Source: an uncultured Erysipelotrichaceae bacterium
GTDB taxonomy: Bacteria; Bacillota_I; Bacilli_A; RF39; UBA660
Assembly (NCBI GenBank): GCA_902798815.1
Contig: CADBYH010000014.1
Location: 1-37,610 of the forward strand
Direction: 5' to 3'
DNA length: 37,610 bases
Under the pieces are notes generated by a model that saw nothing but the letters and a program-made list of their open reading frames with translations, searched no databases and had not been told where the DNA came from. This document shows, in pieces, positions 2,760-34,373 of this stretch (position 1 is its first letter; every line of letters starts with the position of its first letter). The translations under genes and the position numbers were made by a program.

Positions 2760-4172
2760 ATAATTAAAAAAACATTTTTCTTAATATCAGTTTTCTGTAT
2801 ATCACTATTTAAATTACTAAATGTGAATGCTGAAAGCGCAACTTTCTATGAGGCAGAATATATAGATAATATATACATGAGTAAGTATCAATACTCAAAT
2901 CAAACAACATATTATCAAAAAGCAAGGTTTTTTAGAAAAACAGGTACAAATGAATTTGCATATTGTATAGAACCACTTAATTTTTTTAATGAAAACTCTA
3001 CTTATGAATCAACTATATCACCAAGCTACCTAAGTGAATATCAAAAAGAAATGATAAAAAGAATAGCATATTTTGGATATGGATATAAAAATCATACAGA
3101 TGTAAAATGGTATGCAATAACTCAACTTATGATCTGGCAATATGCAGAACCATCAAGAGGTAAGTATTATTTTACAGATACACTTAATGGAAGTATTATT
3201 AATCCATACAATCAAGAAAAAAATGAAATATTATCTCTTGTAAATAATTATGGTACATTACCAAATACAAATAACAACACTTATATAATTAGAGAAAATC
3301 AAACTCTCACAATTGATGGAGGAGAAGTATTAAGCAATTTTTCATCAAATGATCCACACATAACAATAAATGGTAGTGAATTAACAATAAGTAACTTAGA
3401 AGAAGGAGAATATGAATTTGAATTATCAAGAAACGATTATAATTATAATAAACCATTAATTTTCTACCAATCATCAAATAGTCAAGATATGCTAAAAACG
3501 GGTGATCTAGGTACAACAATAAGTAAATTCAATGTTAAAGTTCTAAAAACTGAAATAGAAATAATAAAAAAAGATAAAGATACTGAAGACGTTTTACCAA
3601 AAGGAGAAGGAGAACTTGATGGAGCAACAATATCTTTATACGACAACAATATGGAATTAATAGATGATTTTGTAGTAAAAAGCAATAAAATAAAAATAGA
3701 AAACATAGACTTTGGAAAATACTATTTAAAAGAAAAAGAACCAGGAAAAGGATATACATTAGATGAAACAATATATGAAATAAATATTACAGAAACAAAT
3801 CCTAAACAATCTATTGATATATACAATAAGATAATCGAAAAAAATATAACAATTATCAAAAAATATGGAGATAATATAAACTTAAATGCAGAAAAAAATA
3901 TTGATTTTGAAATATATGATATTAATGATAATCTTATCAGTACCATTTCAACAAATGAAAATGGAGAAGCATCTATTATATTACCATATGGAAAATATAA
4001 ATTTGTACAAGTAAACTCGACACCAGGTTACAAAAAAGTTGAATCATTTATTATTGATATTAGTAATACAGAAGATGAAGTAATAGAATTAAAAGATTAT
4101 AAAATTCCAGTTCCAAACACACATACAAATTATTTAATACTGATACTTCATATATTATTATTAATACTATGA
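2760..4172 (+). CDS. Sortase-anchored adhesin with thioester domain and two Cna-B/SpaA domains; non-AUG start
   Basis: A probable wall-anchored surface protein. The first in-frame GTG (2823) would cut off the secretion signal, yet the reading frame stays open upstream and encodes IKKTFFLISVFCISLFKLL, a good signal peptide. No ATG, GTG or TTG lies in that stretch. GGAGGG at 2748-2753 points to ATA (2760, 6-base spacing) or ATT (2763, 9-base spacing) as start, so I call 2760 with that uncertainty. With this numbering, Cys69 (YCIEP) and Gln122 (TQLMIWQ) match the Cys/Gln pair that forms the internal thioester in TED adhesins. Two prealbumin-like Cna-B modules follow (about 265-350 and 360-440). 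The C-terminus has PVPNTHTN plus a hydrophobic run, an LPXTG-like sorting signal, but no positive tail. Its TGA overlaps the sortase ATG, so the pair is probably co-translated. Confidence 0.8.
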   Translation: MIKKTFFLISVFCISLFKLLNVNAESATFYEAEYIDNIYMSKYQYSNQTTYYQKARFFRKTGTNEFAYCIEPLNFFNENSTYESTISPSYLSEYQKEMIKRIAYFGYGYKNHTDVKWYAITQLMIWQYAEPSRGKYYFTDTLNGSIINPYNQEKNEILSLVNNYGTLPNTNNNTYIIRENQTLTIDGGEVLSNFSSNDPHITINGSELTISNLEEGEYEFELSRNDYNYNKPLIFYQSSNSQDMLKTGDLGTTISKFNVKVLKTEIEIIKKDKDTEDVLPKGEGELDGATISLYDNNMELIDDFVVKSNKIKIENIDFGKYYLKEKEPGKGYTLDETIYEINITETNPKQSIDIYNKIIEKNITIIKKYGDNINLNAEKNIDFEIYDINDNLISTISTNENGEASIILPYGKYKFVQVNSTPGYKKVESFIIDISNTEDEVIELKDYKIPVPNTHTNYLILILHILLLIL

Positions 4173-4699
4173 TTAAAAACATTCTAATTATACTAGCACT
4201 AAATATATTAATATTATTTCCACTAACAATCTTAAAAATAAATAATACTAATATAAATAATTCTATAAATAGATTCAAAATAATAAACAATCATAATAAC
4301 GATAAAATAGGATACATAAAGATTAAATCATTAAACATAAATGAACCACTATATAAAATTGATAGTGAAGAAAACAATGTTGATAAACACATTACAATAT
4401 TAAAAGAATCAATCTTCCCAGATAAAGATAATAGTATTATTTTTATCGCTGCACATTCAGGAGAAGGAAAAATCGCATATTTTAATGAATTAAATAAATT
4501 AAAAATAGATGATGAAGTAATAATAAAAATAAACAACAAAAAATATACATATCTAGTTAAAGAAATGTGGGAAGAAAAAAAGAATGGTTTCATAAATGTC
4601 AATAAAGAACCAGATAATCAATTAATTTTAACAACATGTAGTCCTATTCATAATAATTATCAACTCATAGTTAATTGCATTGAAAAAGAGTCAAATTAA
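4169..4699 (+). CDS. Sortase (class C/D-like) with Gln in place of the catalytic Arg
   Basis: A membrane-anchored transpeptidase (TM about residues 5-23), probably dedicated to the adhesin encoded just upstream, with which it shares an ATGA overlap. The sortase core is recognisable from IKSLNINEPLY onward. Catalytic His96 sits in IAAHSG and catalytic Cys157 in LTTCSP. The usual Arg eight or nine residues after the Cys (R-[L/I]-[L/I]-V) is replaced by Gln165 in YQLIV. At 176 aa it is short but within the range of small class D-like enzymes. It may have altered activity, use another stabilising residue, or be impaired. Family assignment is confident; class and activity are inferred. Confidence 0.85.
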   Translation: MIKNILIILALNILILFPLTILKINNTNINNSINRFKIINNHNNDKIGYIKIKSLNINEPLYKIDSEENNVDKHITILKESIFPDKDNSIIFIAAHSGEGKIAYFNELNKLKIDDEVIIKINNKKYTYLVKEMWEEKKNGFINVNKEPDNQLILTTCSPIHNNYQLIVNCIEKESN

Positions 4700-9922: not shown

Positions 9923-9954
9923 AAAAGAAGACTACTTTAATCACGTCTTCTTTT
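9923..9954 (-). terminator. Terminator of the first RNase R-type gene
   Basis: A 10-bp stem AAAAGAAGAC (9923-9932) pairs with 9945-9954 around a 12-base loop, with T-run on the minus strand. It contains the gene's stop codon. Confidence 0.75.
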
Positions 9955-12183
9955 AAGCCTATCCGTTTTCGCCTTAATCATAACCTTTTTATTAATTCTC
10001 TCCGAATCATTAATTTTTGTTTGACTAATTTTATTTATAATAGTAAAATCTATTTTCTTTGTCTCTTTTGATGAAGATTTAAGTTTTAATAATAGTCTAT
10101 CTCCAATATAATAATTATCATTACCATCAAGCGATACCAATGAGTAACTATCTGGACTATAAACATAATCACCCGGTAAATCTCTTACTCTAACAGTCCC
10201 TTCAATATTATTATCTAATTGAACAGTTAAACAATCCTGTGAGACACATGTAATAACTGCCTCGAATTCTTCTCCAATATGATCTTCCATATATTTAGCA
10301 CATAACATATGAAGAACATCCCTTTCAGCCCCATCAGATACTCTTTCCATATGAGAAGTTCGTTCAGCTATTTCAGGTAATTTTTTTATCCACTTTGCTC
10401 TATTCTTTGAACTTTTATCTTTATTAAAAACACAATCCCATAATATTCTATGAACAGTTAAATCAGCATATCTTCTAACAGGAGAAGTAAAATGACAATA
10501 ATGATCTTTTGCTAATCCAAAATGTCCTGTATTTTCTTGACTATATCTAGCTCTAGCCATACATTGAATAGCATCTCTAAATAATAAATCAGTTAATTTA
10601 TCACAAGAAGCAATATGATTTACTAATTTTTGATAACATCTGTTACTTGTAGATAATTCATAAGAATTATACTTTTCAAAAGGAACATTAATAGCATCTA
10701 AAAATCTTAAGAATTTTTCCAATTTTTCTGAATCAGGACTTCCATGCACTCTATGAACACAAGGAAGTGAAGATCTACAAAGTTCTTTATCAACTGTTTC
10801 ATTTGCAATTAGCATAAATTCTTGAATTAGATTTTCTGCAACATCCTGATTTCTTAAACTAAAACCAGTAATTTTTCCATCATCAGAATAAACTGCTTTT
10901 AATTCAGAACCCTTAAATTCAATTGCTCCTGCTTTTATTCTTTTTTTTCTAAGTATCAATGATAATTTACTCATCATTTTCAATGTATCAGCAAATTGTT
11001 CATATTCAGAATCATATTCATTATCCTTTAATAACTTATTAACCTTTGTATATGTCATCTTTAACTTTGATTCAATAACTGTAGGAGTTATTCTATAATT
11101 AACAATATCTCCTTCCTTTGTGATCTCCATAATACAAGAAATCGCTTTTCTTTTAACATATGGATTCAATGATCCTATACCATTAGATATCTTATGCGGG
11201 GTCATAGGGAAAACAGAATTACCAAGATAATAACTATTTCCTTTTCTAAAAGCATCAATATCAAGAGGTGAACCTTCAGGAATTATACTCGCAACATCAG
11301 TAATATGAACTCCTAAAACATAATTACCATTTTTATTAAGAGTACAACTAATAGCATCATCCATATCCTTTGTATCTTCACCATCAATTGTAAAAATCAT
11401 CCAATCAGACAAATCTTCTCTGCCGATCATATCATTATCAGACAATTCTGACGGAATAGACTCTAATTGTTTAATAGATTCACCACTAAATTCGTTATCA
11501 ATTCCATACTTAAATGCTTCCCACGAAATATCTTCACCCGGATCATCTCTATGATTAAATGTCTTAACGACCTCTGCATTATAAAAACCATCATTAACAC
11601 AATTTAATAGTCTAACAGCAACCCTTTCTCCTTCAATAGCTTGATCACTTAATGCAATAGTTATAGCCTGTTTCTTTTTATCAATAGGTTTAACAAAGTA
11701 ACTAGACCCAACAGCATACACTTCCCCTAAGATATAATCTAAACTTCTGTCTAATACTTTCTCAACCCTAGGAGAATTTTTCTTGTTTCCTAAATCAATA
11801 AGAACAAAATCTCCATCAATAGCTCCATTTACCTTATCACGTCTGATTTCATATTTTTCTTCTGTTGTTACTAATTTTCCATCTCTATTTGTATACGAAG
11901 TAAAAACTGATACTTTACCAGCACCAGATCTATCTGCATAGAATCTACCTTTTCTAAATGAGGACTTTAAATAATGTATATAATTATCATTTGGAGTCTT
12001 AATAATATCATACTCTCCCACACATTCTTTAATAATATCAAAAATATCATTTTTCTCTTCCTCTGATAAAATATAATCTTTTCCTATCTCATTTGTTTTA
12101 ATAGATTCTATTTTCTTTAATATTTTTTCATAAGAAATTGGTTTTTTTGCTTTTAATAATACTTTTTCTATATAATCTCTCAT
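9937..12183 (-). CDS. RNase R/RNase II-family 3'-5' exoribonuclease (paralogue 1)
   Basis: A processive exoribonuclease of the RNB family. Order: an N-terminal winged-helix-like region (1-70), cold-shock/OB domains (about 75-220), the RNB catalytic domain with the metal-binding acidic cluster DGEDTKDMDDA at 267-277, the conserved HFTSPVRRYADLTVHR stretch, and an S1 domain near the C-terminus (about 640-715). A very basic tail ending KRRRD may bind RNA. At 748 aa it is a full-length RNase R. A second complete paralogue lies at 24814-26925 in the secG-smpB cluster. The present copy is the more divergent by position and sequence and stands alone between cdaA and a DUF378 gene. All catalytic acids are present, so it should be active. 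Confidence 0.93.
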   Translation of the reverse strand: MRDYIEKVLLKAKKPISYEKILKKIESIKTNEIGKDYILSEEEKNDIFDIIKECVGEYDIIKTPNDNYIHYLKSSFRKGRFYADRSGAGKVSVFTSYTNRDGKLVTTEEKYEIRRDKVNGAIDGDFVLIDLGNKKNSPRVEKVLDRSLDYILGEVYAVGSSYFVKPIDKKKQAITIALSDQAIEGERVAVRLLNCVNDGFYNAEVVKTFNHRDDPGEDISWEAFKYGIDNEFSGESIKQLESIPSELSDNDMIGREDLSDWMIFTIDGEDTKDMDDAISCTLNKNGNYVLGVHITDVASIIPEGSPLDIDAFRKGNSYYLGNSVFPMTPHKISNGIGSLNPYVKRKAISCIMEITKEGDIVNYRITPTVIESKLKMTYTKVNKLLKDNEYDSEYEQFADTLKMMSKLSLILRKKRIKAGAIEFKGSELKAVYSDDGKITGFSLRNQDVAENLIQEFMLIANETVDKELCRSSLPCVHRVHGSPDSEKLEKFLRFLDAINVPFEKYNSYELSTSNRCYQKLVNHIASCDKLTDLLFRDAIQCMARARYSQENTGHFGLAKDHYCHFTSPVRRYADLTVHRILWDCVFNKDKSSKNRAKWIKKLPEIAERTSHMERVSDGAERDVLHMLCAKYMEDHIGEEFEAVITCVSQDCLTVQLDNNIEGTVRVRDLPGDYVYSPDSYSLVSLDGNDNYYIGDRLLLKLKSSSKETKKIDFTIINKISQTKINDSERINKKVMIKAKTDRLKRRRD

Positions 12184-19604: not shown

Positions 19605-19988
19605 TGGTGGAGCTGAGGAGAATCGAACTCCTGTCCGAAAAAAGCGATACATAAACATCTACAAGCTTAGTTAACTAATTGTTAATCATATAATTTCCAA
19701 GTAGTTAACGACCAAGAAACTATATTAGTCTAAAAATTCTTTCTATTCCCTAGACAAAGAATAGATATAACCTATAAAAATGAACCTCTGAATAATCTCT
19801 AGGTTAAGATTAAAAAGAAGCGCTAGCCTTATTAATTATATTAGGCAAAAGCAACTGCTTGGCGTCCACCAAACATATTTGCTATAGCATTTTTTAATTT
19901 TGTTGCATTTATTTTTTTTAGCGTTTTACGTGAACAACACGACTTGCAATCTATGCTCAACCAATCCCGTCGAAACCATATCAGCCCC
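19605..19988 (-). ncRNA. ssrA: Transfer-messenger RNA (tmRNA)
   Basis: Rescues stalled ribosomes together with SmpB. The 5' end GGGGCUG (from 19988) pairs with CAGCUCC at the 3' end in a 7-bp acceptor stem with one wobble. The 3' CCA is encoded (19607-19605). The T-arm contains GTTCGATTC and the 5' part the conserved TTTCGACGGGATTGG. The tag frame resumes at GCA (19906-19904) after an AAAAAAAATAAAT stretch that parallels the region before the E. coli resume codon. It ends at TAA (19843-19841). The encoded part is 21 residues, beginning ATKLKN and ending AVAFA; one more Ala comes from the charged tRNA-like domain. At 384 nt the RNA is a normal one-piece form. This RNA and its flanks fill the only gap of over 300 bases without a protein gene. 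Confidence 0.97.
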
Positions 19989-24813: not shown

Positions 24814-26925
24814 TTAGTCAACCTTTCTTACAATCTCAAAATCAATTGTTTTATCTGCTTTACTAGCTCTTACAACCTTAACGAGAACTCTTTCACCAAT
24901 AGTATACCTTATTTTGCTCTTTTCTCCAACTAAACATAAATGATCTTCATCAAAATGAAAGAAATCTTTCATATCTCTTATTGGTACAAGACCCTCAACA
25001 AGATTATCTAATTCCACAAACATTCCAAAACTTGTTACAGAAGAAATCATACCTTCATATTCTTCTCCAATATGATTTTCCATATATTCAGCCATTTTCA
25101 TATCTTCAACTTCACGTTCACAATCTACACTAGCCCTTTCTCGCTCTGAAGAATGTTCTGTAACATATACTAATTTTTCTTCCCATTTTTTTATAGTAGC
25201 CATATCTATTTTGCCATCAAACAAATAAGTTCTTAATAATCTATGAACAGTTGTATCAGGATAACGTCTTATAGGAGAAGTAAAATGTGTGTAACAATCA
25301 CTTGCTAAACCATAATGACCTAAATTTTCTGGTTTATAAACAGCTTTTTTCATACATCTCAATAAAAGAGATGACAAAATACTATATTCCTTCTTATCCT
25401 TTAATTGTTCTAAAATATTCTGAATTGAAGTTGGTCTTAAATCCTTTACATCACCTTTAACAGAATATCCTAATCCACTAACATATCCAAGAAAACTTCT
25501 TATTTTTTCCTCCTCTGGATACTCATGAACTCTATAAACAAAAGGTAAGTTCATAAAATAAATATGAGTAGCAACACATTCATTAGCAGCAATCATAAAA
25601 TCCTCGATAAGATTTTCTCCTACGCCTCTTTCTCTTAAAACAATATCAGTTGGAACGCAATTCTCATCAACCAATATCTTAGCTTCTTCTACTCCAAAAT
25701 CAATATACCCTCTTTTTATTTTTGCTTTTCTAAGTATTTTGGCAAGTTCAGCCATAATTCTCAATGACTCCTCATATTCTTCATATCCTTCAGGTATAAC
25801 ATTATTCTCTAAAATACTATTAACTTTCTTATAAGTCATTTGAATTCTTGATTTAATAACACTTGGGAATATTTCATAGTTTAATTGTTTTCCTAGTGAG
25901 TCAAATTCCATTACACAAGAAACAGCTAACCTATCAACATTTGGATTTAAAGAACATATACCATTGGATAATTCATGCGGTAACATAGGAATAACTCTAT
26001 CCACTAAATAAACACTTGTACCTCTATCCATCGCTTCATTATCAAGTGGACTTCCTTCTTTTACATAATAACTTACATCAGCTATATGTACTCCTAATTG
26101 AAAATGTCCATTTGGAAGAAGTTTAATACTAATTGCATCGTCAATATCTTTAGTATCATCACCATCAATAGTAAATATTTCTTCATCACGTAAATCTCTT
26201 CTTCCATGCAAATCATTATCAGTAACCTCCATAGGAATATCTTGTACTTCTCTTTTTACATCCTCTGGAAAATCAACATTAATACTATATTTATAAATAA
26301 TTGAAAGTATATCAACACCAGGATCATTTACATGTCCTATTACTTCAACAACTTTTCCTTCATATCTTCCACTATTATTAAGTTTTTTTCCAAGTTCTAC
26401 AAGAACCTTATGACCATCAACTGAATTCAATCCATTTCCTTTAGGAATTTCAATATTGAGTTTTACTTTACTATCATCCAAAGTAATATGTCCTATTCCT
26501 TTTTCATCATAATTAATGACACCAACAAATCTATCTGTTTTTCTTTTTATAATTCTTAAAACTCGTCCTTCTAATCTATCTAAAGTCATCTTACTCGTAA
26601 TTTCAACAAGAACAAAATCATCATGTATTGCACCATTCATATTATCATGAGAAATATATATATCTTCAGTTAATCCTTCTACTTCTACAAATCCAAACCC
26701 TTTTTTATTAACTCTCATTATACCTTTTTTTAAATGACTATCTTCAAGCATCATATATCTATTTTTATTTGAACAGTATATAACAACATCTTCTTCTAGT
26801 TCCTTTAAAACATCTTCTAATTCTTTAATTTCATCAACAGAAGTAATATTCATTATTTTTTGTATTTCATATATATCAAGAGCCTTATCTGAATTCTTCA
26901 AGATATTTATTAAATCATCCTTCAT
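24814..26925 (-). CDS. rnr: Ribonuclease R
   Basis: A 3'-5' exoribonuclease that degrades structured RNA and, with SmpB-tmRNA, the faulty mRNAs of stalled ribosomes. Order: helix-turn-helix-like N-terminus, cold-shock domains (about 65-200), RNB domain with DGDDTKDIDDA at 254-264 holding the metal-binding Asp residues, and HFTSPIRRYPDTTVHR. A C-terminal S1 domain (about 625-700) starts at GEEYEGMISSVTSFGMFVEL. 703 aa is the usual length. Its place beside secG and smpB marks it as the orthologue of the standard rnr. The ribosome site GAAGGTGG precedes the start. A second family member lies at 9937-12183. Confidence 0.96.
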   Translation of the reverse strand: MKDDLINILKNSDKALDIYEIQKIMNITSVDEIKELEDVLKELEEDVVIYCSNKNRYMMLEDSHLKKGIMRVNKKGFGFVEVEGLTEDIYISHDNMNGAIHDDFVLVEITSKMTLDRLEGRVLRIIKRKTDRFVGVINYDEKGIGHITLDDSKVKLNIEIPKGNGLNSVDGHKVLVELGKKLNNSGRYEGKVVEVIGHVNDPGVDILSIIYKYSINVDFPEDVKREVQDIPMEVTDNDLHGRRDLRDEEIFTIDGDDTKDIDDAISIKLLPNGHFQLGVHIADVSYYVKEGSPLDNEAMDRGTSVYLVDRVIPMLPHELSNGICSLNPNVDRLAVSCVMEFDSLGKQLNYEIFPSVIKSRIQMTYKKVNSILENNVIPEGYEEYEESLRIMAELAKILRKAKIKRGYIDFGVEEAKILVDENCVPTDIVLRERGVGENLIEDFMIAANECVATHIYFMNLPFVYRVHEYPEEEKIRSFLGYVSGLGYSVKGDVKDLRPTSIQNILEQLKDKKEYSILSSLLLRCMKKAVYKPENLGHYGLASDCYTHFTSPIRRYPDTTVHRLLRTYLFDGKIDMATIKKWEEKLVYVTEHSSERERASVDCEREVEDMKMAEYMENHIGEEYEGMISSVTSFGMFVELDNLVEGLVPIRDMKDFFHFDEDHLCLVGEKSKIRYTIGERVLVKVVRASKADKTIDFEIVRKVD

Positions 26926-27276: not shown

Positions 27277-27302
27277 AAAACCAACTACATAAAGTTGGTT
27301 TT
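27277..27302 (-). terminator. Terminator of the type VII secretion operon
   Basis: A 10-bp perfect stem AAAACCAACT (27277-27286) pairs with 27293-27302, with a T-run on the minus strand. Confidence 0.85.
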
Positions 27303-27324: not shown

Positions 27325-27804
27325 TTATGCTGCTTGTCCGTCTAAAGATCCAGAATCTGAATTTAAATCTCCAGAAAGGTCTGAATCTTGAGTGTTGTAT
27401 GCAGTAGCAACACTGTTAACAATTTCAGATTCTGCAGCTTTTAATCTTGCAGTATAACTTTTTGCAACAGCTTTAACAGAATCAATAAATTTTGTAAGTG
27501 CTGCTTTTACAGCTTCACCTTTAAAAGCAACTTCACTATTTGCATTTTCTAATTGATCTAAATAACCATCAATTTCAGATACATAAGTATCAATTTCATT
27601 TGATACATTTGTTGCAAAAGATGCAGTAACTCCGGCTAAAGTAGCTCCTGATGCTTCAGTATTAAACCATTGCCATGGCGCTAATCCTGGTGCCCATTGT
27701 TGGTTTGCTGTTTCTCCACCAAAACCGCTTGCATCAACTGAAGATGCATTTAATGTATCTCTTTCTCCTGTTTCAATAGTAGCTCCACTCATTGATATTG
27801 ACAT
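27325..27804 (-). CDS. Putative type VII secretion substrate, 159 aa
   Basis: Last gene of the operon, with the best ribosome site of the cluster (AGGAGGT), so probably highly expressed. The first 50 residues are polar with a Trp/Pro patch (QQWAPGLAPWQWF, 36-48). Residues about 55-135 form two long amphipathic, Ala-rich helices joined near 90-97. A YxxxD sequence (YNTQD, 136-140) follows the second helix, as in type VII export signals, then a Ser/Asp/Gly tail. There is no WXG at the helix turn, no signal peptide and no TM. Base composition is less AT-rich than the surrounding genes. I infer an exported structural or effector protein; no toxin domain is visible. Confidence 0.7.
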   Translation of the reverse strand: MSISMSGATIETGERDTLNASSVDASGFGGETANQQWAPGLAPWQWFNTEASGATLAGVTASFATNVSNEIDTYVSEIDGYLDQLENANSEVAFKGEAVKAALTKFIDSVKAVAKSYTARLKAAESEIVNSVATAYNTQDSDLSGDLNSDSGSLDGQAA

Positions 27805-27817
27805 ACTTTCTTACCTC

Positions 27818-28123
27818 CTAATCCGCTTCTATTAGTGCTTCATCCTTATTAGCCATTGCAGCTTGTAAAGAATTTATTTCACTACATAAAATACTATATA
27901 GAGCATCAAATTGCTCTCCTACGTGTTGTGAATCTTTTTGTAAATTTGAAATAAAATTATCTCTTGCTTTACCTTCCCACTCGTTCTCACAACATGTTTG
28001 AATTCCAGAAATATCTTCAACTCTTTCTTTTGCCTTGTCTAAATATTCTGATTTAATATCAGAAAGATATTGTTCAACTCCTGAAGCCTCAAAACCATAC
28101 TCGAAATCTCCAATTGCTGGCAT
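27818..28123 (-). CDS. WXG100-family protein
   Basis: 101-aa helical hairpin protein of the EsxA class. Trp49-Glu50-Gly51 in ENEWEGKARDNF forms the family WXG turn, with helices about 14-45 and 52-90. A Cys pair (44-45) lies right before the turn, unusual for the family. There is no YxxxD in the tail, so it may need a partner that carries the signal, such as the protein from the adjacent gene. A ribosome site of the AAGGAGG type is present. It is the only canonical WXG protein of the operon. Confidence 0.88.
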   Translation of the reverse strand: MPAIGDFEYGFEASGVEQYLSDIKSEYLDKAKERVEDISGIQTCCENEWEGKARDNFISNLQKDSQHVGEQFDALYSILCSEINSLQAAMANKDEALIEAD

Positions 28124-28134
28124 AAAATCCCTCC

Positions 28135-28443
28135 TTAATTGCCAATTTTATCGATATCCCCAATAACCTTAGAAGCTAATTCATCATCTTGGTTCTTATA
28201 TGATTTAACAACACCATCTAAAGCAACGATATAGTTACTAATATTAGTGCGAACTCTAGATAACTGAGAAATAGAAGCATTCAATTTTTTTAAAATAGAT
28301 GCCTTTCCATCACCCTCTAATCCTGAGTTAATTGTATCTCTACAATTAGATAGTCTATTACTCAACGCATTAATATTCTCTTGACAATCAAGTAAATAAA
28401 CTTTCAAAGCATTAATATTATCTTCATTAATTCCAACTGCCAT
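28135..28443 (-). CDS. WXG100-like helical protein without WXG, with YxxxD tail
   Basis: About 102 aa. Two amphipathic helices are separated by GLEGDGKAS, where WXG would be expected but Trp is missing. YKNQD near residue 84 matches YxxxD, so it could be the signal-bearing half of a heterodimer with the WXG100 protein encoded 11 bases downstream. The GTG at 28452 is in frame, but AAGGTG favours the ATG at 28443. There are no TM or signal sequences. Confidence 0.7.
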   Translation of the reverse strand: MAVGINEDNINALKVYLLDCQENINALSNRLSNCRDTINSGLEGDGKASILKKLNASISQLSRVRTNISNYIVALDGVVKSYKNQDDELASKVIGDIDKIGN

Positions 28444-28497
28444 TAACTTCACACCTTATCTAAATATCTTAAACTAAGATTATCATATATTTTTATT

Positions 28498-28516
28498 TAA
28501 CGCAATAGTTGCATTA
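28498..28516 (-). promoter_or_regulatory. Hairpin and candidate internal promoter within the type VII operon
   Basis: The 96-base gap is the largest inside the operon. It holds an 8-bp stem (28498-28505 with 28509-28516, one T-G pair) with a three-base loop and no T-run on the minus strand, hence not a terminator. TTGCGT followed after 17 bases by TAATCT could be an internal promoter for the three last genes. Weak evidence. Confidence 0.3.
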
Positions 28517-28548
28517 TTGATTTACATAATTTTACAAAATCACAACCA

Positions 28549-28851
28549 TTACTTAACTGATAAATTACTTTTTACAACATCATCAACAACTATTTTATTA
28601 ATATCTGCAACACAATTTGCTACCGAATTATTAAATTTATAACAAATTCCATTAATCCAATTTACATATTTAACTGTATCATCAACACAACTATCTATTC
28701 TCTCATAGATATTTCCCCAGTTATAATCATCATATGGAAAATCTGTATATGCGGCATTATTTCTAACATCACATATTTGATTTAAACCCTTTTTTGCCAA
28801 AGGTACTAAATCTCTACTTAAAACCTCAGTATCTATACTTACTTTTGCCAT
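28549..28851 (-). CDS. Type VII operon small protein, 100 aa, unassigned
   Basis: An ESAT-6-sized helical protein that starts MAKVSIDTEVL, like its neighbour's MAKFTMDTTAI. It has YNWGN (43-47) near the middle, so W-G without the normal X spacing, and four cysteines (27, 55, 70, 80) in a pattern that might form disulfides after export. No YxxxD is seen. It lies 8 bases downstream of the 97-aa gene. I cannot assign a family beyond the WXG100-like size and context. Confidence 0.65.
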   Translation of the reverse strand: MAKVSIDTEVLSRDLVPLAKKGLNQICDVRNNAAYTDFPYDDYNWGNIYERIDSCVDDTVKYVNWINGICYKFNNSVANCVADINKIVVDDVVKSNLSVK

Positions 28852-28859
28852 AAAACCTC

Positions 28860-29153
28860 CTAAATTACATCATCTGAACAATTATTTATAGTACTTGCAT
28901 AACGAGAAACATAACTGCTCAAATTACTAATACTTGTAGCTAGAGCCATTGCTGAAACCCTATCACGTGAAACTGATTCAATAAATGTATTTACAGAACC
29001 TGTAACCTTATCACTATCCCAAGTTCCAGCTTTTTGAACGTTTACAAGCTTCTTATACATCTCATCTGCCAAAGAGTAATAATCCTTTGAAATGCTTGAT
29101 AACTCCTCTGCAGCCTTTGTTATAGCTGTAGTATCCATAGTAAATTTAGCCAT
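28860..29153 (-). CDS. WXG100-like protein with degenerate motif
   Basis: 97 aa with two predicted helices (about 10-42 and 52-88) and a turn AGTWDSDKVTG in which Trp45-Asp46-Ser47 stands in for WXG. The N-terminus MAKFTMDTTAITKAAEEL is typical of WXG100 proteins. It overlaps the upstream 108-aa gene by 8 bases. The lack of a C-terminal YxxxD suggests it may pair with another small protein of the operon. Confidence 0.75.
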   Translation of the reverse strand: MAKFTMDTTAITKAAEELSSISKDYYSLADEMYKKLVNVQKAGTWDSDKVTGSVNTFIESVSRDRVSAMALATSISNLSSYVSRYASTINNCSDDVI

Positions 29154-29472
29154 TTTTTTCTTTCTCCCGCCTTTCTATTTCCTCAGCATTTTCAGCATCA
29201 GTAATTGACCAATTTAAGTCATTAATTTTATCAACAGTAGAATTTATTATTGATTCTACATCACTTAATATTGACTCCTCATTTTCAATAAGAAATTGCA
29301 AAAAGTTTGTACCACCACGAACATCATTTACAGAATAGTTAGAATTTTGAATACTTCTAGCAGATTTCATAGTTGAAATTGTTTCTCTTAATGTTCTAGC
29401 AGTATTTCTTGCTCTTCCCAAACAATATTCATATTGTCTTCTGTCATCTTTTAAATCATCAGATCTTGCCAA
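29146..29472 (-). CDS. Type VII operon helical protein, 108 aa, TTG start
   Basis: A highly charged coiled-coil-type protein without membrane segments. GTG at 29481 is in frame but is itself part of the ribosome site GAGGTGA. The TTG at 29472 is properly spaced and gives MARSDDLKDDRR, similar to the MAK starts of its neighbours. Long helices cover about 5-40 and 58-105. It resembles in size and position the small helical partners found in LXG-type loci, but I cannot match it to one. A chaperone or secretion partner is plausible. Confidence 0.65.
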   Translation of the reverse strand: MARSDDLKDDRRQYEYCLGRARNTARTLRETISTMKSARSIQNSNYSVNDVRGGTNFLQFLIENEESILSDVESIINSTVDKINDLNWSITDAENAEEIERREKEKNG

Positions 29473-29482
29473 ATAAATCACC

Positions 29483-29737
29483 TCACATTAATATTATTTT
29501 ACTTCCATTTCTTATATCAGTATTAATAAGTAAAACATCCATAGAATACTTATCTCCTGTATCTCCACTATACAATGAATTAGTTTCATTTGCAACAAAA
29601 TATCCTCCAGATATTTCAGACACAATCTTAGAGACAAGACCAATTATGTTTCCTATCTTTCTATTAACAGGTAAAAACACATCATAACTTTCCTCTAAAA
29701 TTGGAACAACTAATTGTACCAAAACTTTATTCTTCAT
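29483..29737 (-). CDS. YukD/EsaB-like ubiquitin-fold protein
   Basis: Small cytosolic component of type VIIb systems. The 84-aa protein has the pattern of a beta-grasp fold: strand VLVQLVVPILEESYDVFLPVN, helix IGNIIGLVSKIVSEISGG, then strands ending DVLLINTDIRNGSKIILM. ATG at 29737 is preferred over 29755 because the shorter form begins directly with the beta hairpin. It overlaps the end of essC by 11 bases, so translation is coupled. In Bacillus and Staphylococcus such proteins are required for secretion though not secreted themselves. Confidence 0.85.
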   Translation of the reverse strand: MKNKVLVQLVVPILEESYDVFLPVNRKIGNIIGLVSKIVSEISGGYFVANETNSLYSGDTGDKYSMDVLLINTDIRNGSKIILM

Positions 29738-32700
29738 CTTTCTTATCAACTCCATCTACAACATATTTAATAACCATATGATTTCCTTGATAAATTGGAT
29801 AACCAATACATGGGAATACAGTCTTCTTATCTTCCATAGTTAAAGACATAACTCCTAATGATACTTGAGTATCAATACCTTCACCTAACCAAATTCCGAA
29901 AGTATTATTAATATTATCTCTATACCAATCCTCAACTTGAATTAGTTTATATTTATCAGAATCATCAAAATACAAGAAAGTATTATTTTTACACTTAGAA
30001 ACTTGTGAGAATAGAACTTTAAAGTTCTTTTCATACTTAGAAATACTCTTCTTGAAATCAGAAATACCAAGAATAAAGTAAACATGTTTTTCTTTCAAAC
30101 TTGCATCATTACTTGAATTGTTATTTGCCATAATAAATGCTTTTTCTAATTCTTCAGAAGTATATACATCTACTCCCTCTTGAACATTTTTATAAATACT
30201 TAAAGCATCGATAACATGTATTTTTACATTTTCTAGTTTTAACATTTGAGTAATAAGTGCATATACAAAATAAATATGATTCTTTATAGACTTAGCAGCA
30301 ACAAGATTTATCTTTTGTTCTAAGAAGTCATATACATAAACTTCCAAACTGTTTTTTTCAATTCCAATAGGTATACATTCAAGACCTTTTAACTCATGTT
30401 CAACATCTTCAACGTAAACAATTTCTGGTAAAATAGGTATCTTTTTAGCTTTTTTATTTGGATATTTTTCTTGCATTTTTTGTGAGAATTCACGAATAAA
30501 TTGAGTCTTTTCTTCTCTATTACAAATATCTGCTGTTTGGAACTCATAAGCTGTACCACCATCAACAGACACAATACCTCTACCAAAATTATCAACAGGA
30601 ACAAGTCCTTTTGGAGCACCTAATAAATCTCTATAATCGTTTGCATTAGGCATCTTCAAACATATTTTATTTAAGAAGTTTTGAGCAACTCTAGCTCTAA
30701 TAGCATTTTGTTGAGTCGTTGTTACTATGAAAACAATACCATATTTTGCACCATCTCTAAATAATGATGTAAATATATCACCCATTTTTGCATAATTTTC
30801 TTGGAAATTTTCATAATTATTAAGAACTACAACTATAAAAGGATCTTTATTACCTGATAATTTACAGTACTCAGAATAATTTCCACCATATTCTACATAG
30901 TTTTTCTTTCTTGTTTCCAATTCTTTATTAAGCATCTTATACATATTTTCAAGTTTTTGTGCCTCTTCAGTAACAAAAGCGTCTCCAACATGAGGTATTT
31001 TACTCATAATTTTTAATGTCTCTGCACCAAAATCACCAATATAGAAATTGATATCGTCAGGACTAAGTATAGAAGAAAGATAATATATAATTGTTGATGC
31101 TATATTTTCTTTTCCGCAACCAGGAGCACCATATATTAAAACATTTCCATCATTTTTTAAATCAAGTGTTAAAAGTCCTTGTTCCTGTCTTGCAGGAGCA
31201 TCATACTCTCCTATAATTGCCTTTATCTCTATATCTTCTTCCTTTTTTATACTATCCTTATATTTTTCAATAACGTCAGTTAGAAGCATTACTTTAGCAA
31301 GAGAAGGTAACCATAATTTTTGAACAACAAAACCATCATCTTCTGCTATTTTGCTCAAATACTTAACAATATTTGTTAATTGATCACCTAAGTCTTCTTT
31401 TACAACCTCTTGTTTTGGAGTTTCAATTGATTTTTTAGTAACATTACCAAAATTATCAATAAAGGATATAGAATCATCCAACTTTTTAACAATTCTATCA
31501 GTTGGAATATATTTATCTCCTGACCAAGCAGATTGACCAATATCAAAATATTCATCATAACCAACTTGTAAATAGAATCTTCCAGCTTCCTTAATACTTG
31601 CAGCCTCAGGTCGCTTTAACATTTCCATACTATCTGCTTTTGTAGCAACCTTTAAACATACCTTAAATTTAGAGTTTGACCAAATTTGATCATTAACAAC
31701 ACCAGCAGGTTTTTGAGTTGCTAGAATTAAGTGAACTCCAAGAGAACGTCCAATACGAGCCGTAGAAACCAACTCTGCCATAAACTCAGGTTGTTGTGCT
31801 TTTAACTCAGCAAACTCATCGGAAATAATGAATAAATGTGAAACAGGTTCATCAATTAAACCTTCCCTATACAATCTTTGATATTTGTAAATATCCATTG
31901 TACTTTCACCGGTTTGTTCCTTAACCTTATTAAATTGAGCTTGTCTTCTTTTTAACTCACTATTTATTGACACTAAAGTACGATTCATTTCAGCAACATC
32001 AAGGTTTGTTATTGTACCAGCTAAGTGAGGAATTGAAATTCCCATTTCTCTATTTTCAAATGCACCAGTCAATCCTCCACCTTTATAATCGATAAGCACA
32101 AATTGAACTTCTTTAGGATCATAATTAAGTGCCATAGATAAAATATATGTAATAATAAACTCAGATTTACCAGATCCAGTAGAACCTGCTATCAATCCAT
32201 GAGGACCTTCAAATTTTTCATGTAAATCCAAACTAAATATTTCTCCACTAGTATGTACTCCTATAGGAGCAGCAAGTGTGTTCATAGGATCACTTGTTTC
32301 CCAACGATTTCTAATATTTAATTGTTCAATCTTACCAACATTATACATTTGTAGGAATGATAATCCGGATGGTAATTGACTCTCTGCATCTCTTCCTTGT
32401 ACAGGAATATTACCAACAATTCTTCCAACTTGTCTCATATCAAGACCATCAGCATATTCAGCACTAAATTTAACAGTATCTTCTTCTTTTACACGATCAT
32501 TAAACATTCCACTTTCAGCATCATCAATAACTAAGAATTTTTTACATTCATTTGGAATATTACGCATATCATTATCGAATACAAGTAACGAAAACCCTAA
32601 ATTAAATTGATTTTCCAATAAATCCTGAATAAATTTATAATTTCTTATAGATTTAAAATTATCAGTTACAATCAAATAATATGATTCAAACAGTTTATAC

Positions 32701-34373
32701 TCATCTAGTTTTTCCTTATTTGTATCTGCCAATTCCTTAAGTCTTTCATTTCTCGTTTCTTTACGCTCAGTATATTCTGTATCTAAATATTGACTTAATA
32801 ACTTTGTATCTTCAGTAGTAACAGCAAAAAATCTTGTTTGTGAATCATCACTCCAGTTATGTTTTGTATATTTTAAATAATTCCATTTATAACTATTAGC
32901 AAAATCTGTAAAAACAACTATTTTTAAATCAAGTGGACTATGTAAAGATAATAATTGTAACATTACACCATTAATAAATTCATTTTTCTTCTTACTTTGT
33001 AATATCATAGCTGTAACAATTTGGTCTTTCAAACTTACAGATATTGGTACATTATTTAATTTATCATATTTTGAGCCAAGAATAATAACAGCTTCTCTTA
33101 AATTGTCATCATCTAATGTAAATTGCTCCTCAGGAGCTCTAACAACTACTTTAGATGGTTTACTACCTATACCAACTCTTACTTCAACAAAGTCATCATC
33201 TTTTATTGTATGACTCCATAATAATCTAGTTCTTTTTTGGATTATTTGAATACAATTAGCAATATCTAAACTGTTTTCACAAACAATTTGCTCTTGTTTT
33301 TTTATTTTTGCAATTATTTCATCCTCTTTTTTCTTCAAATATTCCCCATATTTAAGTTGTCTATTTTTTTCCCTTGCCTTACTCAATTTCTTTTGCCATT
33401 TTTTTGTCAATTGAGGTATAAGTAAAGCTCCAATCAACATAGTAGTAACCATTACTAATTGTGGTAAAACTGCTACAATCCCCTTCTTTTGAACAGATAG
33501 ACTATTATAAATACTAAACGCTTGGACAAAAGTCATACCAAGCATAGAAAAACTTGAACCAATACTTAACAAAAATGGCATATCATTATCAGAATCTTGT
33601 TTTCCTGGAGGAGCATCTATTCTTATTTCCTCTTCTTCAACAACGCTTCTTATTCTTGGAATATGAGAAAAATACTCATTTTCATTGTATAAAGGAACAT
33701 TACCATCAACTTCAGAAACAGGTGTAAAATCCGTATTCTTTGTTGAATTATCTATTGTATATGATCTAACTCCAGTTACATTATAAATTTGACTATTCAT
33801 AGGTATAATGAATTGTTTTTTCATCCAAACAATTCTAAGTCCGTTCATGAAAATTATATCTCCAGCAAAAATAGGAGATGGAGTAACTACTCTTTGATTG
33901 TTTACATAAACAAACAAATTAGCACCATTTGTTGTAGGATAAATATACCAATGATTATTAACCAATTTTATAACAGCATGTTGATCAGCCATTAAGTTCT
34001 GTTTATAAATAATATGATTGTTATCACTTTTACCAATTGAAAGTGATGTTAAATCTCCTATATCATATATTCTTTCAAAGTTTTCAGTTGAAGGCAAACA
34101 AAAAATAAAGATGTATTTTGCACCACCTGAAATTGAAACAGGTACACACATATAATCTTTTAATTCAATTTCCTCAAGAAAAGAATTACCTCCACCGATT
34201 ATATTTACATTACCATTACTCTTTAATACCCATTTACCATCAACTGCATCAACATTGATTGAATTCTCTAATCCATTTGACTTAGAGATAAATGAAAATA
34301 ACATTGAACCATCAACTTTTGATGGTAAATTAAACTTTAATAAACTGTTATCATCTTGAACATATAAACGCAT
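29727..34373 (-). CDS. essC: Type VII secretion ATPase EssC/YukBA
   Basis: The membrane motor of the type VIIb secretion system, 1548 aa. N-terminal tandem FHA domains (about 1-100 and 103-195) mark the Firmicutes form. Two TM helices follow (about 266-290 and 298-318), then FtsK/SpoIIIE domains. The first ATPase domain is intact: Walker A GSTGSGKS at 730-737 and Walker B LFIISDE with Asp852-Glu853. The second has GAPGCGKE at 1082-1089, lacking the Ser/Thr, and a Walker B-like VVVLNN without acid, so it is probably inactive. The third has no P-loop. This pattern agrees with known EssC proteins where domain 1 drives transport. It is first gene of the operon, with its own promoter. EsaA, EssA and EssB are absent next to it. 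Confidence 0.96.
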   Translation of the reverse strand: MRLYVQDDNSLLKFNLPSKVDGSMLFSFISKSNGLENSINVDAVDGKWVLKSNGNVNIIGGGNSFLEEIELKDYMCVPVSISGGAKYIFIFCLPSTENFERIYDIGDLTSLSIGKSDNNHIIYKQNLMADQHAVIKLVNNHWYIYPTTNGANLFVYVNNQRVVTPSPIFAGDIIFMNGLRIVWMKKQFIIPMNSQIYNVTGVRSYTIDNSTKNTDFTPVSEVDGNVPLYNENEYFSHIPRIRSVVEEEEIRIDAPPGKQDSDNDMPFLLSIGSSFSMLGMTFVQAFSIYNSLSVQKKGIVAVLPQLVMVTTMLIGALLIPQLTKKWQKKLSKAREKNRQLKYGEYLKKKEDEIIAKIKKQEQIVCENSLDIANCIQIIQKRTRLLWSHTIKDDDFVEVRVGIGSKPSKVVVRAPEEQFTLDDDNLREAVIILGSKYDKLNNVPISVSLKDQIVTAMILQSKKKNEFINGVMLQLLSLHSPLDLKIVVFTDFANSYKWNYLKYTKHNWSDDSQTRFFAVTTEDTKLLSQYLDTEYTERKETRNERLKELADTNKEKLDEYKLFESYYLIVTDNFKSIRNYKFIQDLLENQFNLGFSLLVFDNDMRNIPNECKKFLVIDDAESGMFNDRVKEEDTVKFSAEYADGLDMRQVGRIVGNIPVQGRDAESQLPSGLSFLQMYNVGKIEQLNIRNRWETSDPMNTLAAPIGVHTSGEIFSLDLHEKFEGPHGLIAGSTGSGKSEFIITYILSMALNYDPKEVQFVLIDYKGGGLTGAFENREMGISIPHLAGTITNLDVAEMNRTLVSINSELKRRQAQFNKVKEQTGESTMDIYKYQRLYREGLIDEPVSHLFIISDEFAELKAQQPEFMAELVSTARIGRSLGVHLILATQKPAGVVNDQIWSNSKFKVCLKVATKADSMEMLKRPEAASIKEAGRFYLQVGYDEYFDIGQSAWSGDKYIPTDRIVKKLDDSISFIDNFGNVTKKSIETPKQEVVKEDLGDQLTNIVKYLSKIAEDDGFVVQKLWLPSLAKVMLLTDVIEKYKDSIKKEEDIEIKAIIGEYDAPARQEQGLLTLDLKNDGNVLIYGAPGCGKENIASTIIYYLSSILSPDDINFYIGDFGAETLKIMSKIPHVGDAFVTEEAQKLENMYKMLNKELETRKKNYVEYGGNYSEYCKLSGNKDPFIVVVLNNYENFQENYAKMGDIFTSLFRDGAKYGIVFIVTTTQQNAIRARVAQNFLNKICLKMPNANDYRDLLGAPKGLVPVDNFGRGIVSVDGGTAYEFQTADICNREEKTQFIREFSQKMQEKYPNKKAKKIPILPEIVYVEDVEHELKGLECIPIGIEKNSLEVYVYDFLEQKINLVAAKSIKNHIYFVYALITQMLKLENVKIHVIDALSIYKNVQEGVDVYTSEELEKAFIMANNNSSNDASLKEKHVYFILGISDFKKSISKYEKNFKVLFSQVSKCKNNTFLYFDDSDKYKLIQVEDWYRDNINNTFGIWLGEGIDTQVSLGVMSLTMEDKKTVFPCIGYPIYQGNHMVIKYVVDGVDKKDEE

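What the first reader, a model, noticed from the sequence alone, without database searches (positions are those of the whole stretch)
27325..34373. Compact type VII secretion operon without EsaA, EssA or EssB
One promoter, one terminator, and eight genes on one strand: EssC with FHA domains, a YukD-like protein and six small, mostly helical proteins. Known type VIIb systems of Staphylococcus and Bacillus also need EsaA, EssA and EssB. Both borders here are ordinary housekeeping genes (murD, secG). Either the missing membrane subunits lie elsewhere, or this lineage runs a reduced machine, perhaps with small proteins taking over. This is the best candidate for an undescribed variant.
Basis: partly seen in the sequence, partly recalled or inferred. 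Interest (0 to 1): 0.75.

Follow-up and report, generated by a model that had tools for sequence, protein, structure and literature searches.

The report
Stripped-down type VII secretion operon
This operon of an uncultured, likely gut-dwelling bacterium carries the motor ATPase of a type VII secretion system, a likely ubiquitin-like partner and six small proteins, but none of the three usual membrane partners; EssB, the one that could be searched for most reliably, passed its cut-off in none of 72 genomes of the same family, so the operon likely exports proteins with a stripped-down machine.

Summary
The operon is real: essC, a yukD-like gene and six small genes on the minus strand at 27325-34373, between murD and secG. 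EssC passes NCBI's cut-off; s5 is a WXG100/EsxA relative; s6 relatives carry a YxxxD/E motif. EssB is over cut-off in 0 of 72 family genomes, 52 of them with EssC. EsaA and EssA gave no credible match either, but those two tests are weak in this class. Systems without these subunits are already published (T7SSc-j, PMC11217815). In 139 related operon runs only the YukD-like gene is near-constant (124), and no predicted membrane-protein family recurs in more than 4. These EssCs form one clade (support 100). Its earliest branch keeps a kinase, a DUF6382 protein and an intact FHA site; the other loci searched lack the kinase and the full site. Best reading: a reduced variant, likely derived from a kinase/FHA-bearing T7SS, likely with EssC as its only dedicated membrane protein. 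Unlinked partners cannot be excluded; subtypes c, d and f-j could not be placed on the tree.

The parts
29727..34373 (-). essC/tsxC: 1548-aa FtsK/SpoIIIE-type ATPase with one N-terminal FHA domain
   Evidence: TIGR03928 931 bits, cut-off 778.4; PF01580 and PF00498; profile A1 matches YukB 9qks at E 2.3e-180; first Walker A GSGKS invariant in 139 of 139 related EssCs
29483..29737 (-). yukD-like/tsxB candidate: 84 aa, overlaps the essC stop
   Evidence: family member in the operon run of 124 of 139 related loci; hhalign 97.1% to TsxB-position proteins of four loci of another family; PF08817 sub-threshold in 4 of 20 relatives; no PDB sequence match; 0.5% to four T7SSb YukDs, poor alignment
29146..29472 (-). 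s1: 108-aa helical-looking protein, Lap-like by position (inferred)
   Evidence: 36 hits in 36 loci by iterated profile; start codon chosen by script
28860..29153 (-). s2: 97-aa WXG100-superfamily protein
   Evidence: iterated profile joins it to WXG100-type proteins, 182 hits in 96 loci; fused to s3 in one contig, fetched as L054 and L114
28549..28851 (-). s3: 100-aa protein, free-standing version of an N-terminal domain of large proteins
   Evidence: same domain at the N-terminus of 5 proteins of 485-1411 aa at other essC loci, by iterated profile
28444..28548 (-). 105-nt gap with promoter-like pattern ahead of s4-s5-s6
28135..28443 (-). s4: 102-aa WXG100-superfamily protein
   Evidence: iterated profile; YxxxD/E in 7 of 16 relatives against 3.8 in shuffles
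27818..28123 (-). s5: 101-aa WXG100 protein, EsxA/TsxA candidate
   Evidence: W-x-G invariant in 17 of 17 aligned rows; PF06013 in 15 of 17 at E<=0.1, sub-cut-off (16.4 bits) in the window protein itself; S. aureus EsxA 2vrz at E 5e-6 by profile
27325..27804 (-). s6: 159-aa protein with low-confidence N-terminal stretch, predicted hairpin and C-terminal YxxxD/E motif; predicted main cargo
   Evidence: motif in 14 of 18 relatives (12 of 16 distinct) against 4.8 of 18 in shuffles; model helices 61-87 and 97-158, mean pLDDT 63
27277..27302 (-). intrinsic terminator-like hairpin after s6

Best explanation
Window 27325-34373 is a type VII secretion operon with an FHA-bearing EssC ATPase, a protein that is likely YukD-like and six small, predicted helical proteins of which at least one (s5) is a WXG100 protein, and it would export those small proteins through a channel likely built from EssC alone, without EsaA, EssA or EssB. 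Shown by sequence: the gene set, EssC identity, the WXG100 identity of s5, the lack of EssB in the lineage, the near-constant pairing of EssC with the YukD-like gene, and the lack of at least one of three phosphothreonine-site residues of the FHA domain in 138 of 139 related EssCs. Inferred: EssC subunits assemble into the membrane pore, the YukD-like protein docks on its cytoplasmic part, the triads s1-s2-s3 and s4-s5-s6 dock as helical bundles through the YxxxD/E signal of s6 (possibly also s4), and ATP hydrolysis drives export. Also inferred: the system descends from a kinase/FHA/DUF6382-bearing T7SS by loss of the phospho-control parts.
For: EssC 931 bits. Two EssC loci in the same genome, neither with the three subunits in view. 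EssC in 52 of 72 family genomes, 25 of these at 90% completeness or more; EssB over cut-off in 0 of 72 and no match at E<=0.01 in 72 with a class-made profile that gives 516-537 bits in three carriers, all three among its own rows. YukD-like family in the operon run of 124 of 139; no other predicted membrane-protein family in more than 4 of 139 operon runs at three hydropathy thresholds. First Walker A and the DE pair invariant in 139 of 139. s5. YxxxD/E in s6. s2-s3 fusion with a predicted helical bundle, pLDDT 82.6. The two triads keep their inner order in 10 of 10 loci but swap places as blocks, five and five. L090 keeps kinase, DUF6382 and the R, S, H of the FHA site.
Against: Secretion is untested. 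Membrane partners of an unrelated family encoded away from essC cannot be excluded. The own genome is 75.7% complete. The EsaA and EssA tests are weak: known carriers G072 and G094 do not reach the EsaA cut-off, PF10661 does not ring over cut-off in G072, G094 or G109, and the class-made EssA profile finds only two of its own rows. EssB has sub-cut-off hits of 14.5-21.8 bits in 12 family genomes (cut-off 27.4). In the wider neighbourhood (-6 to +12 genes, either strand) four predicted membrane-protein families do recur, in 19-35 loci at the stated thresholds, nearly all beside the other (C12-type) kind of locus. In 32 of 139 loci these profiles found no WXG100-superfamily gene, 17 of them with 14 or more genes in view. 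The YukD identity is weak. Descent from a kinase-bearing ancestor rests on one locus; the tree joins the clade to T7SSb rather than to the T7SSe-type row (support 96, long-branch warnings); 30 of 139 EssCs still keep S and H of the FHA site.
Confidence: 0.57

Rival explanations
1. The machine has further membrane subunits of an unrelated, unrecognised family encoded elsewhere in the genome.
For: Most subtypes in PMC11217815 have extra membrane parts; only loci up to about 25 kb were read, not whole genomes; in C12-type loci four predicted membrane-protein families recur a few genes away from essC.
Against: In operon runs no such family recurs in more than 4 of 139, and none of the four recurring families is in the window neighbourhood. 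In controls G072 and G109 EssB sits next to essC.
Confidence: 0.28
2. It is a T7SSb whose EssB, EssA and EsaA diverged beyond detection.
For: TIGR03928 cut-off is passed, the clade joins T7SSb in the tree, and 12 family genomes have weak EssB hits of 14.5-21.8 bits.
Against: EssC frames of 1500 aa or more score about 836-1082 bits in the family against 1167 and 1329 in the EssB carriers G072 and G109, a modest drop, while EssB falls from 178-285 bits to nothing over cut-off and no match at E<=0.01 with a class-made profile.
Confidence: 0.05
3. It is a degenerate member of a published subtype, most likely T7SSf or T7SSj, that lost the J/D/F parts.
For: L090, the earliest branch, has a kinase, a DUF6382 protein and YukD-like proteins; f and j also have FHA-bearing ATPases (PMC11217815).
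Against: The J, D and F parts are missing at the window locus and DUF6382 in 71 of 72 family genomes.
Confidence: 0.3
4. The locus is a decaying, non-functional remnant.
For: Parts are missing and the FHA site is incomplete.
Against: No stop codon inside any of the listed EssC matches, up to four matches per genome, invariant first Walker A and DE pair in 139 of 139.
Confidence: 0.03

Closest known systems
T7SSb (S. aureus Ess, B. subtilis Yuk)
   Same: EssC with N-terminal FHA region, EsxA-like WXG100 protein, YukD-like protein
   Different: No EssB in the family, no EsaA or EssA found; EssC forms a separate clade
T7SSe/T7SSj (PMC11217815; L203 here is a T7SSe-type locus)
   Same: FHA-bearing TsxC, TsxB, WXG100 proteins; the earliest branch L090 shares kinase and DUF6382
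   Different: Window has no kinase, PP2C phosphatase, DUF6382-FHA protein or Ig-domain protein at the locus, and its FHA site lacks the aligned R and S
T7SSf (PMC11217815)
   Same: FHA-bearing ATPase, TsxA, TsxB, no kinase
   Different: No DUF6382 protein J and no PP2C F; no gene of the size of the AAA+ protein V in the operon
T7SSg (PMC11217815)
   Same: Few parts, dominated by A, B and C
   Different: TsgC lacks FHA domains, the window EssC has one; no large propeller gene in the operon

Membership tests
Type VII secretion (general) | EccC/EssC ATPase | tested here: met
   TIGR03928 931 bits
Type VII secretion (general) | WXG100 protein EsxA/TsxA | tested here: met
   s5:
Type VII secretion (general) | Ubiquitin-like EsaB/YukD | tested here: inconclusive
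   97.1% to TsxB-position proteins, 0.5% to four T7SSb YukDs, PF08817 sub-threshold in 4 of 20, no PDB sequence match; fold not predicted
Type VII secretion (general) | Secretion of the small proteins | not testable with these tools
   needs an experiment
T7SSb | EssB | tested here: not met
   0 of 72 family genomes over cut-off, with sub-cut-off hits of 14.5-21.8 bits in 12; 0 of 72 at E<=0.01 with profile A9
T7SSb | EsaA | tested here: inconclusive
   0 of 72 over cut-off, none in the own genome at E<=0.01; family hits of 54-63 bits in G011, G019 and G047, on contigs without essC, and of 15-21 bits in five more; but G072 and G094, which have EssB, also miss the cut-off, and genomes without EssC reach 76-108 bits
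T7SSb | EssA | tested here: inconclusive
   PF10661: one family hit over cut-off (24.5 against 24.1 bits, G033) inside a 603-aa kinase frame, own genome 21.8 bits in a frame with stops; the model misses the EssB carriers too. Class-made profile: 0 of 72 at E<=0.001, rings only in two of its own rows. No membrane gene in the window operon besides EssC
T7SSe/T7SSj | Kinase TsxD at the locus | tested here: not met
   kinase gene at 1 of 138 loci, L090; the one kinase found in the own genome is on C11, not on an essC contig
T7SSe/T7SSf/T7SSj | TsxJ with DUF6382 | tested here: not met
   1 of 119 genomes, G047 only; no named control genome rang, but the model is over cut-off in L203 and L202
T7SSe/T7SSf/T7SSj | PP2C phosphatase TsxF at the locus | tested here: not met
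   phmmer with the L203 PP2C: one hit besides itself among the fetched loci, L067, on the strand opposite to essC
T7SSc/T7SSg/T7SSh | TsxC without FHA domain | tested here: not met
   PF00498 E 1.3e-6 in the window EssC
T7SSc, d, f, g, h, i, j | TsxC falls in that subtype's clade | not tested
   no reference sequences of these subtypes could be fetched

The most novel reading that the evidence does not exclude
A whole family of uncultured Bacilli runs, often in several parallel copies per cell, a type VII secretion machine whose only dedicated membrane protein is EssC: a three-part A-B-C system that shed its kinase/FHA control and every accessory membrane subunit, with each EssC serving its own swappable triads of hairpin cargo.
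Probability: 0.47. Interest if true: 0.75.

Novelty: new variant of a known kind. Interest (0 to 1): 0.57.

Why it matters
What the accessory membrane subunits of type VII secretion are for is an open question. A large natural lineage that keeps EssC, a YukD-like protein and hairpin proteins but lacks EssB, and probably the other known accessory subunits, would define a minimal translocon and make the idea that EssC alone is the pore directly testable. The kinase-bearing early branch beside incomplete FHA sites is a natural experiment on why EssC carries FHA domains.

Full report
What is there. The minus strand at 27325-34373 encodes essC (1548 aa), a yukD-like gene (84 aa) and six small genes here called s1-s6. 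MurD and SecG flank it. A hairpin followed by T's ends the unit at 27302-27277. Gaps are -11 to 13 nt except 105 nt between s3 and s4; in the four close relatives with a printed gap (L052, L057, L118, L173) it is 76-85 nt. A promoter-like pattern lies before s4 in 8 of 9 loci against 2.6 in shuffles (pattern chosen after seeing the alignment). A single promoter is therefore not supported.

The ATPase. EssC scores 931 bits against TIGR03928, cut-off 778.4, has one Pfam FHA domain and matches solved YukB by profile. The first ATPase domain keeps GSGKS and its DE pair in 139 of 139 related EssCs; the lysine of the second P-loop is kept in 127 of 139.

The missing subunits. The own genome (1.45 Mb, 75.7% complete) has two EssC loci, this one and one on contig C12; none of the three subunits is in view at either. 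In 119 relatives, 72 of them in the same family, EssC at E<=1e-100 occurs in 52 of 72 family genomes (38 of 39 in the genus; 25 of the 52 are 90% complete or more). EssB passes its cut-off in 3 of 119 genomes (G072, G094, G109), none in the family; 12 family genomes have sub-cut-off hits of 14.5-21.8 bits against a cut-off of 27.4. A profile made from EssB of the same class finds those three carriers at 516-537 bits (all three are among its rows), one weak hit outside the family, and nothing in the family.

The other two are tested less well. EsaA passes in 1 of 119 (G109), and the own genome has no match at E<=0.01, but G072 and G094, which have EssB, miss the cut-off too; three family genomes have 54-63 bits, on contigs without essC, and genomes without EssC reach 76-108 bits, so such hits do not track the system. 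EssA (PF10661) has one family hit just over cut-off, inside a kinase frame, and a 21.8-bit hit in the own genome in a frame with stops; the model does not ring over cut-off in the EssB carriers. A class-made EssA profile finds only two of its own rows and nothing in the family. In G072 and G109 EssB lies next to essC.

Neighbours. Of 151 non-redundant EssCs, 139 are counted as family type; 12 were dropped: the T7SSb controls L087 and L088, eight rows of another family, and two short rows (L076, L183). The YukD-like family lies in the operon run of 124 of 139. WXG100-superfamily genes lie within -6 to +12 genes in 107 of 139; of the 32 misses 15 had 11 genes or fewer in view and 17 had 14 or more. 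In operon runs no predicted membrane-protein family other than hydropathy calls on the YukD-like protein itself recurs in more than 4 of 139, at thresholds 1.7, 1.4 and 1.2 (at 1.7 the scan misses the EssC membrane segment in 35 of 139). In the wider neighbourhood four such families do recur, in 19-35 loci, nearly all beside C12-type loci, and none is near the window operon. This looks like genus synteny but is not excluded as function. That the window's own bacterium lives in a gut is inferred from these.

The small proteins. s5 has an invariant W-x-G in 17 of 17 rows, matches PF06013 in 15 of 17 at E<=0.1 and S. aureus EsxA at E 5e-6 by profile. In 119 genomes the 11 strong s5 matches all lie within 5 kb of an essC, but 10 of them are rows of the profile; what the search adds is that no strong copy lies elsewhere. 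s6 relatives carry a C-terminal YxxxD/E in 14 of 18 (12 of 16 distinct) against 4.8 of 18 in shuffles; s4 in 7 of 16 against 3.8; s1 3 of 10 against 1.8; s5, s2 and s3 show no clear excess (motif recalled and looked for after reading s6). s3 is the N-terminal domain of five proteins of 485-1411 aa at other essC loci, by an iterated profile, so in the window it stands alone. s2 and s3 are fused in one contig (fetched twice, L054 and L114); the model of the fusion is a helical bundle (pLDDT 82.6, pTM 0.60), with fold matches no better than background. s6 models as a hairpin at low confidence (mean pLDDT 63). In the 10 of 10 loci with this set, s4-s5-s6 stay contiguous and s1-s2-s3 keep their order (s2-s3 fused in one), but the triads swap places: s1-s2-s3 first in five, last in five.

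Origin. In a tree of 66 EssCs that I picked (56 family-type), the 56 form one clade (SH-aLRT 100), apart from three EssB-bearing rows and seven rows of another family (long-branch warnings). One of the seven, L203, is a T7SSe-type locus with DUF6382-FHA, PP2C, kinase and Ig-repeat proteins. The earliest branch within the clade, L090, still has a kinase, a DUF6382 protein and two YukD-like genes, and is the only one of 139 with R, S and H of the FHA phosphothreonine site together; R is kept in 4 of 139, S and H together in 30. A kinase is in view in 1 of 138 loci. This fits loss of phospho-control after the split of L090, but it rests on one locus, and the tree joins the clade to T7SSb rather than to the T7SSe-type row (support 96).

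Comparison. Garrett, Higginson and Palmer 2024 (PMC11217815) describe eight subtypes without EsaA, EssA and EssB, so absence of these subunits is not new. By gene content the window fits none of the eight: e, f and j have DUF6382 proteins; c, g and h lack FHA on the ATPase; c, d, e and j have a kinase; and no gene other than essC in the window operon is long enough for the larger extra parts of i. By tree position only T7SSb and a T7SSe-type row could be tested. It is therefore filed as a new variant of a known kind, not a new kind.

Mechanism (inferred beyond the sequence facts). EssC alone forms the membrane pore, the YukD-like protein docks on it, and the hairpin triads are recognised through YxxxD/E tails and exported as helical bundles. 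No toxin-like part is seen in the window set, so what the exported proteins do is open.

Noticed in passing
G000 contig C12, L004 14183-19462: Second T7SS in the same genome: essC, yukD-like and two proteins of only about 70 aa, one with a W-N-G motif; the last gene of this layout is near essC in 37 of 139 loci.
   Followed up: partly
C12-type loci, e.g. L078 and L105: Predicted membrane-protein clusters n5, n7 (HtrA-like by eye), n11 and n12 (ZIP-transporter-like by eye) recur a few genes from essC in 24-35 loci; genus synteny or a hidden partner.
   Followed up: partly
L114, L173, L118; L116, L117, L119, L121, L123, L128, L131; L048, L051, L053, L058, L060: HExxH proteins (three clusters, 350-582 aa, putative metalloproteases) near window-type operons in 15 loci; none near the window operon.
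   Followed up: partly
L204 4270-11056 and L207 7029-13598: Another family of the class has an essC flanked by two WXG100 genes and a 664-709 aa putative lipoprotein, with sub-cut-off Ig-like similarity in L207; possibly a further arrangement.
   Followed up: no
L126 9290-9922 and a 33-member cluster: A DUF4176 protein (one member tested) belongs to a 33-member cluster that recurs near essC.
   Followed up: no
window 2823-4699: Putative surface protein with thioester/SpaA-like look followed by a sortase-like gene (judged by eye, recalled motifs).
   Followed up: no
window 9937-12183 and 24814-26925: Two RNase R-like genes in one window (judged by eye).
   Followed up: no
window 19605-19988: tmRNA gene on the minus strand.
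   Followed up: no
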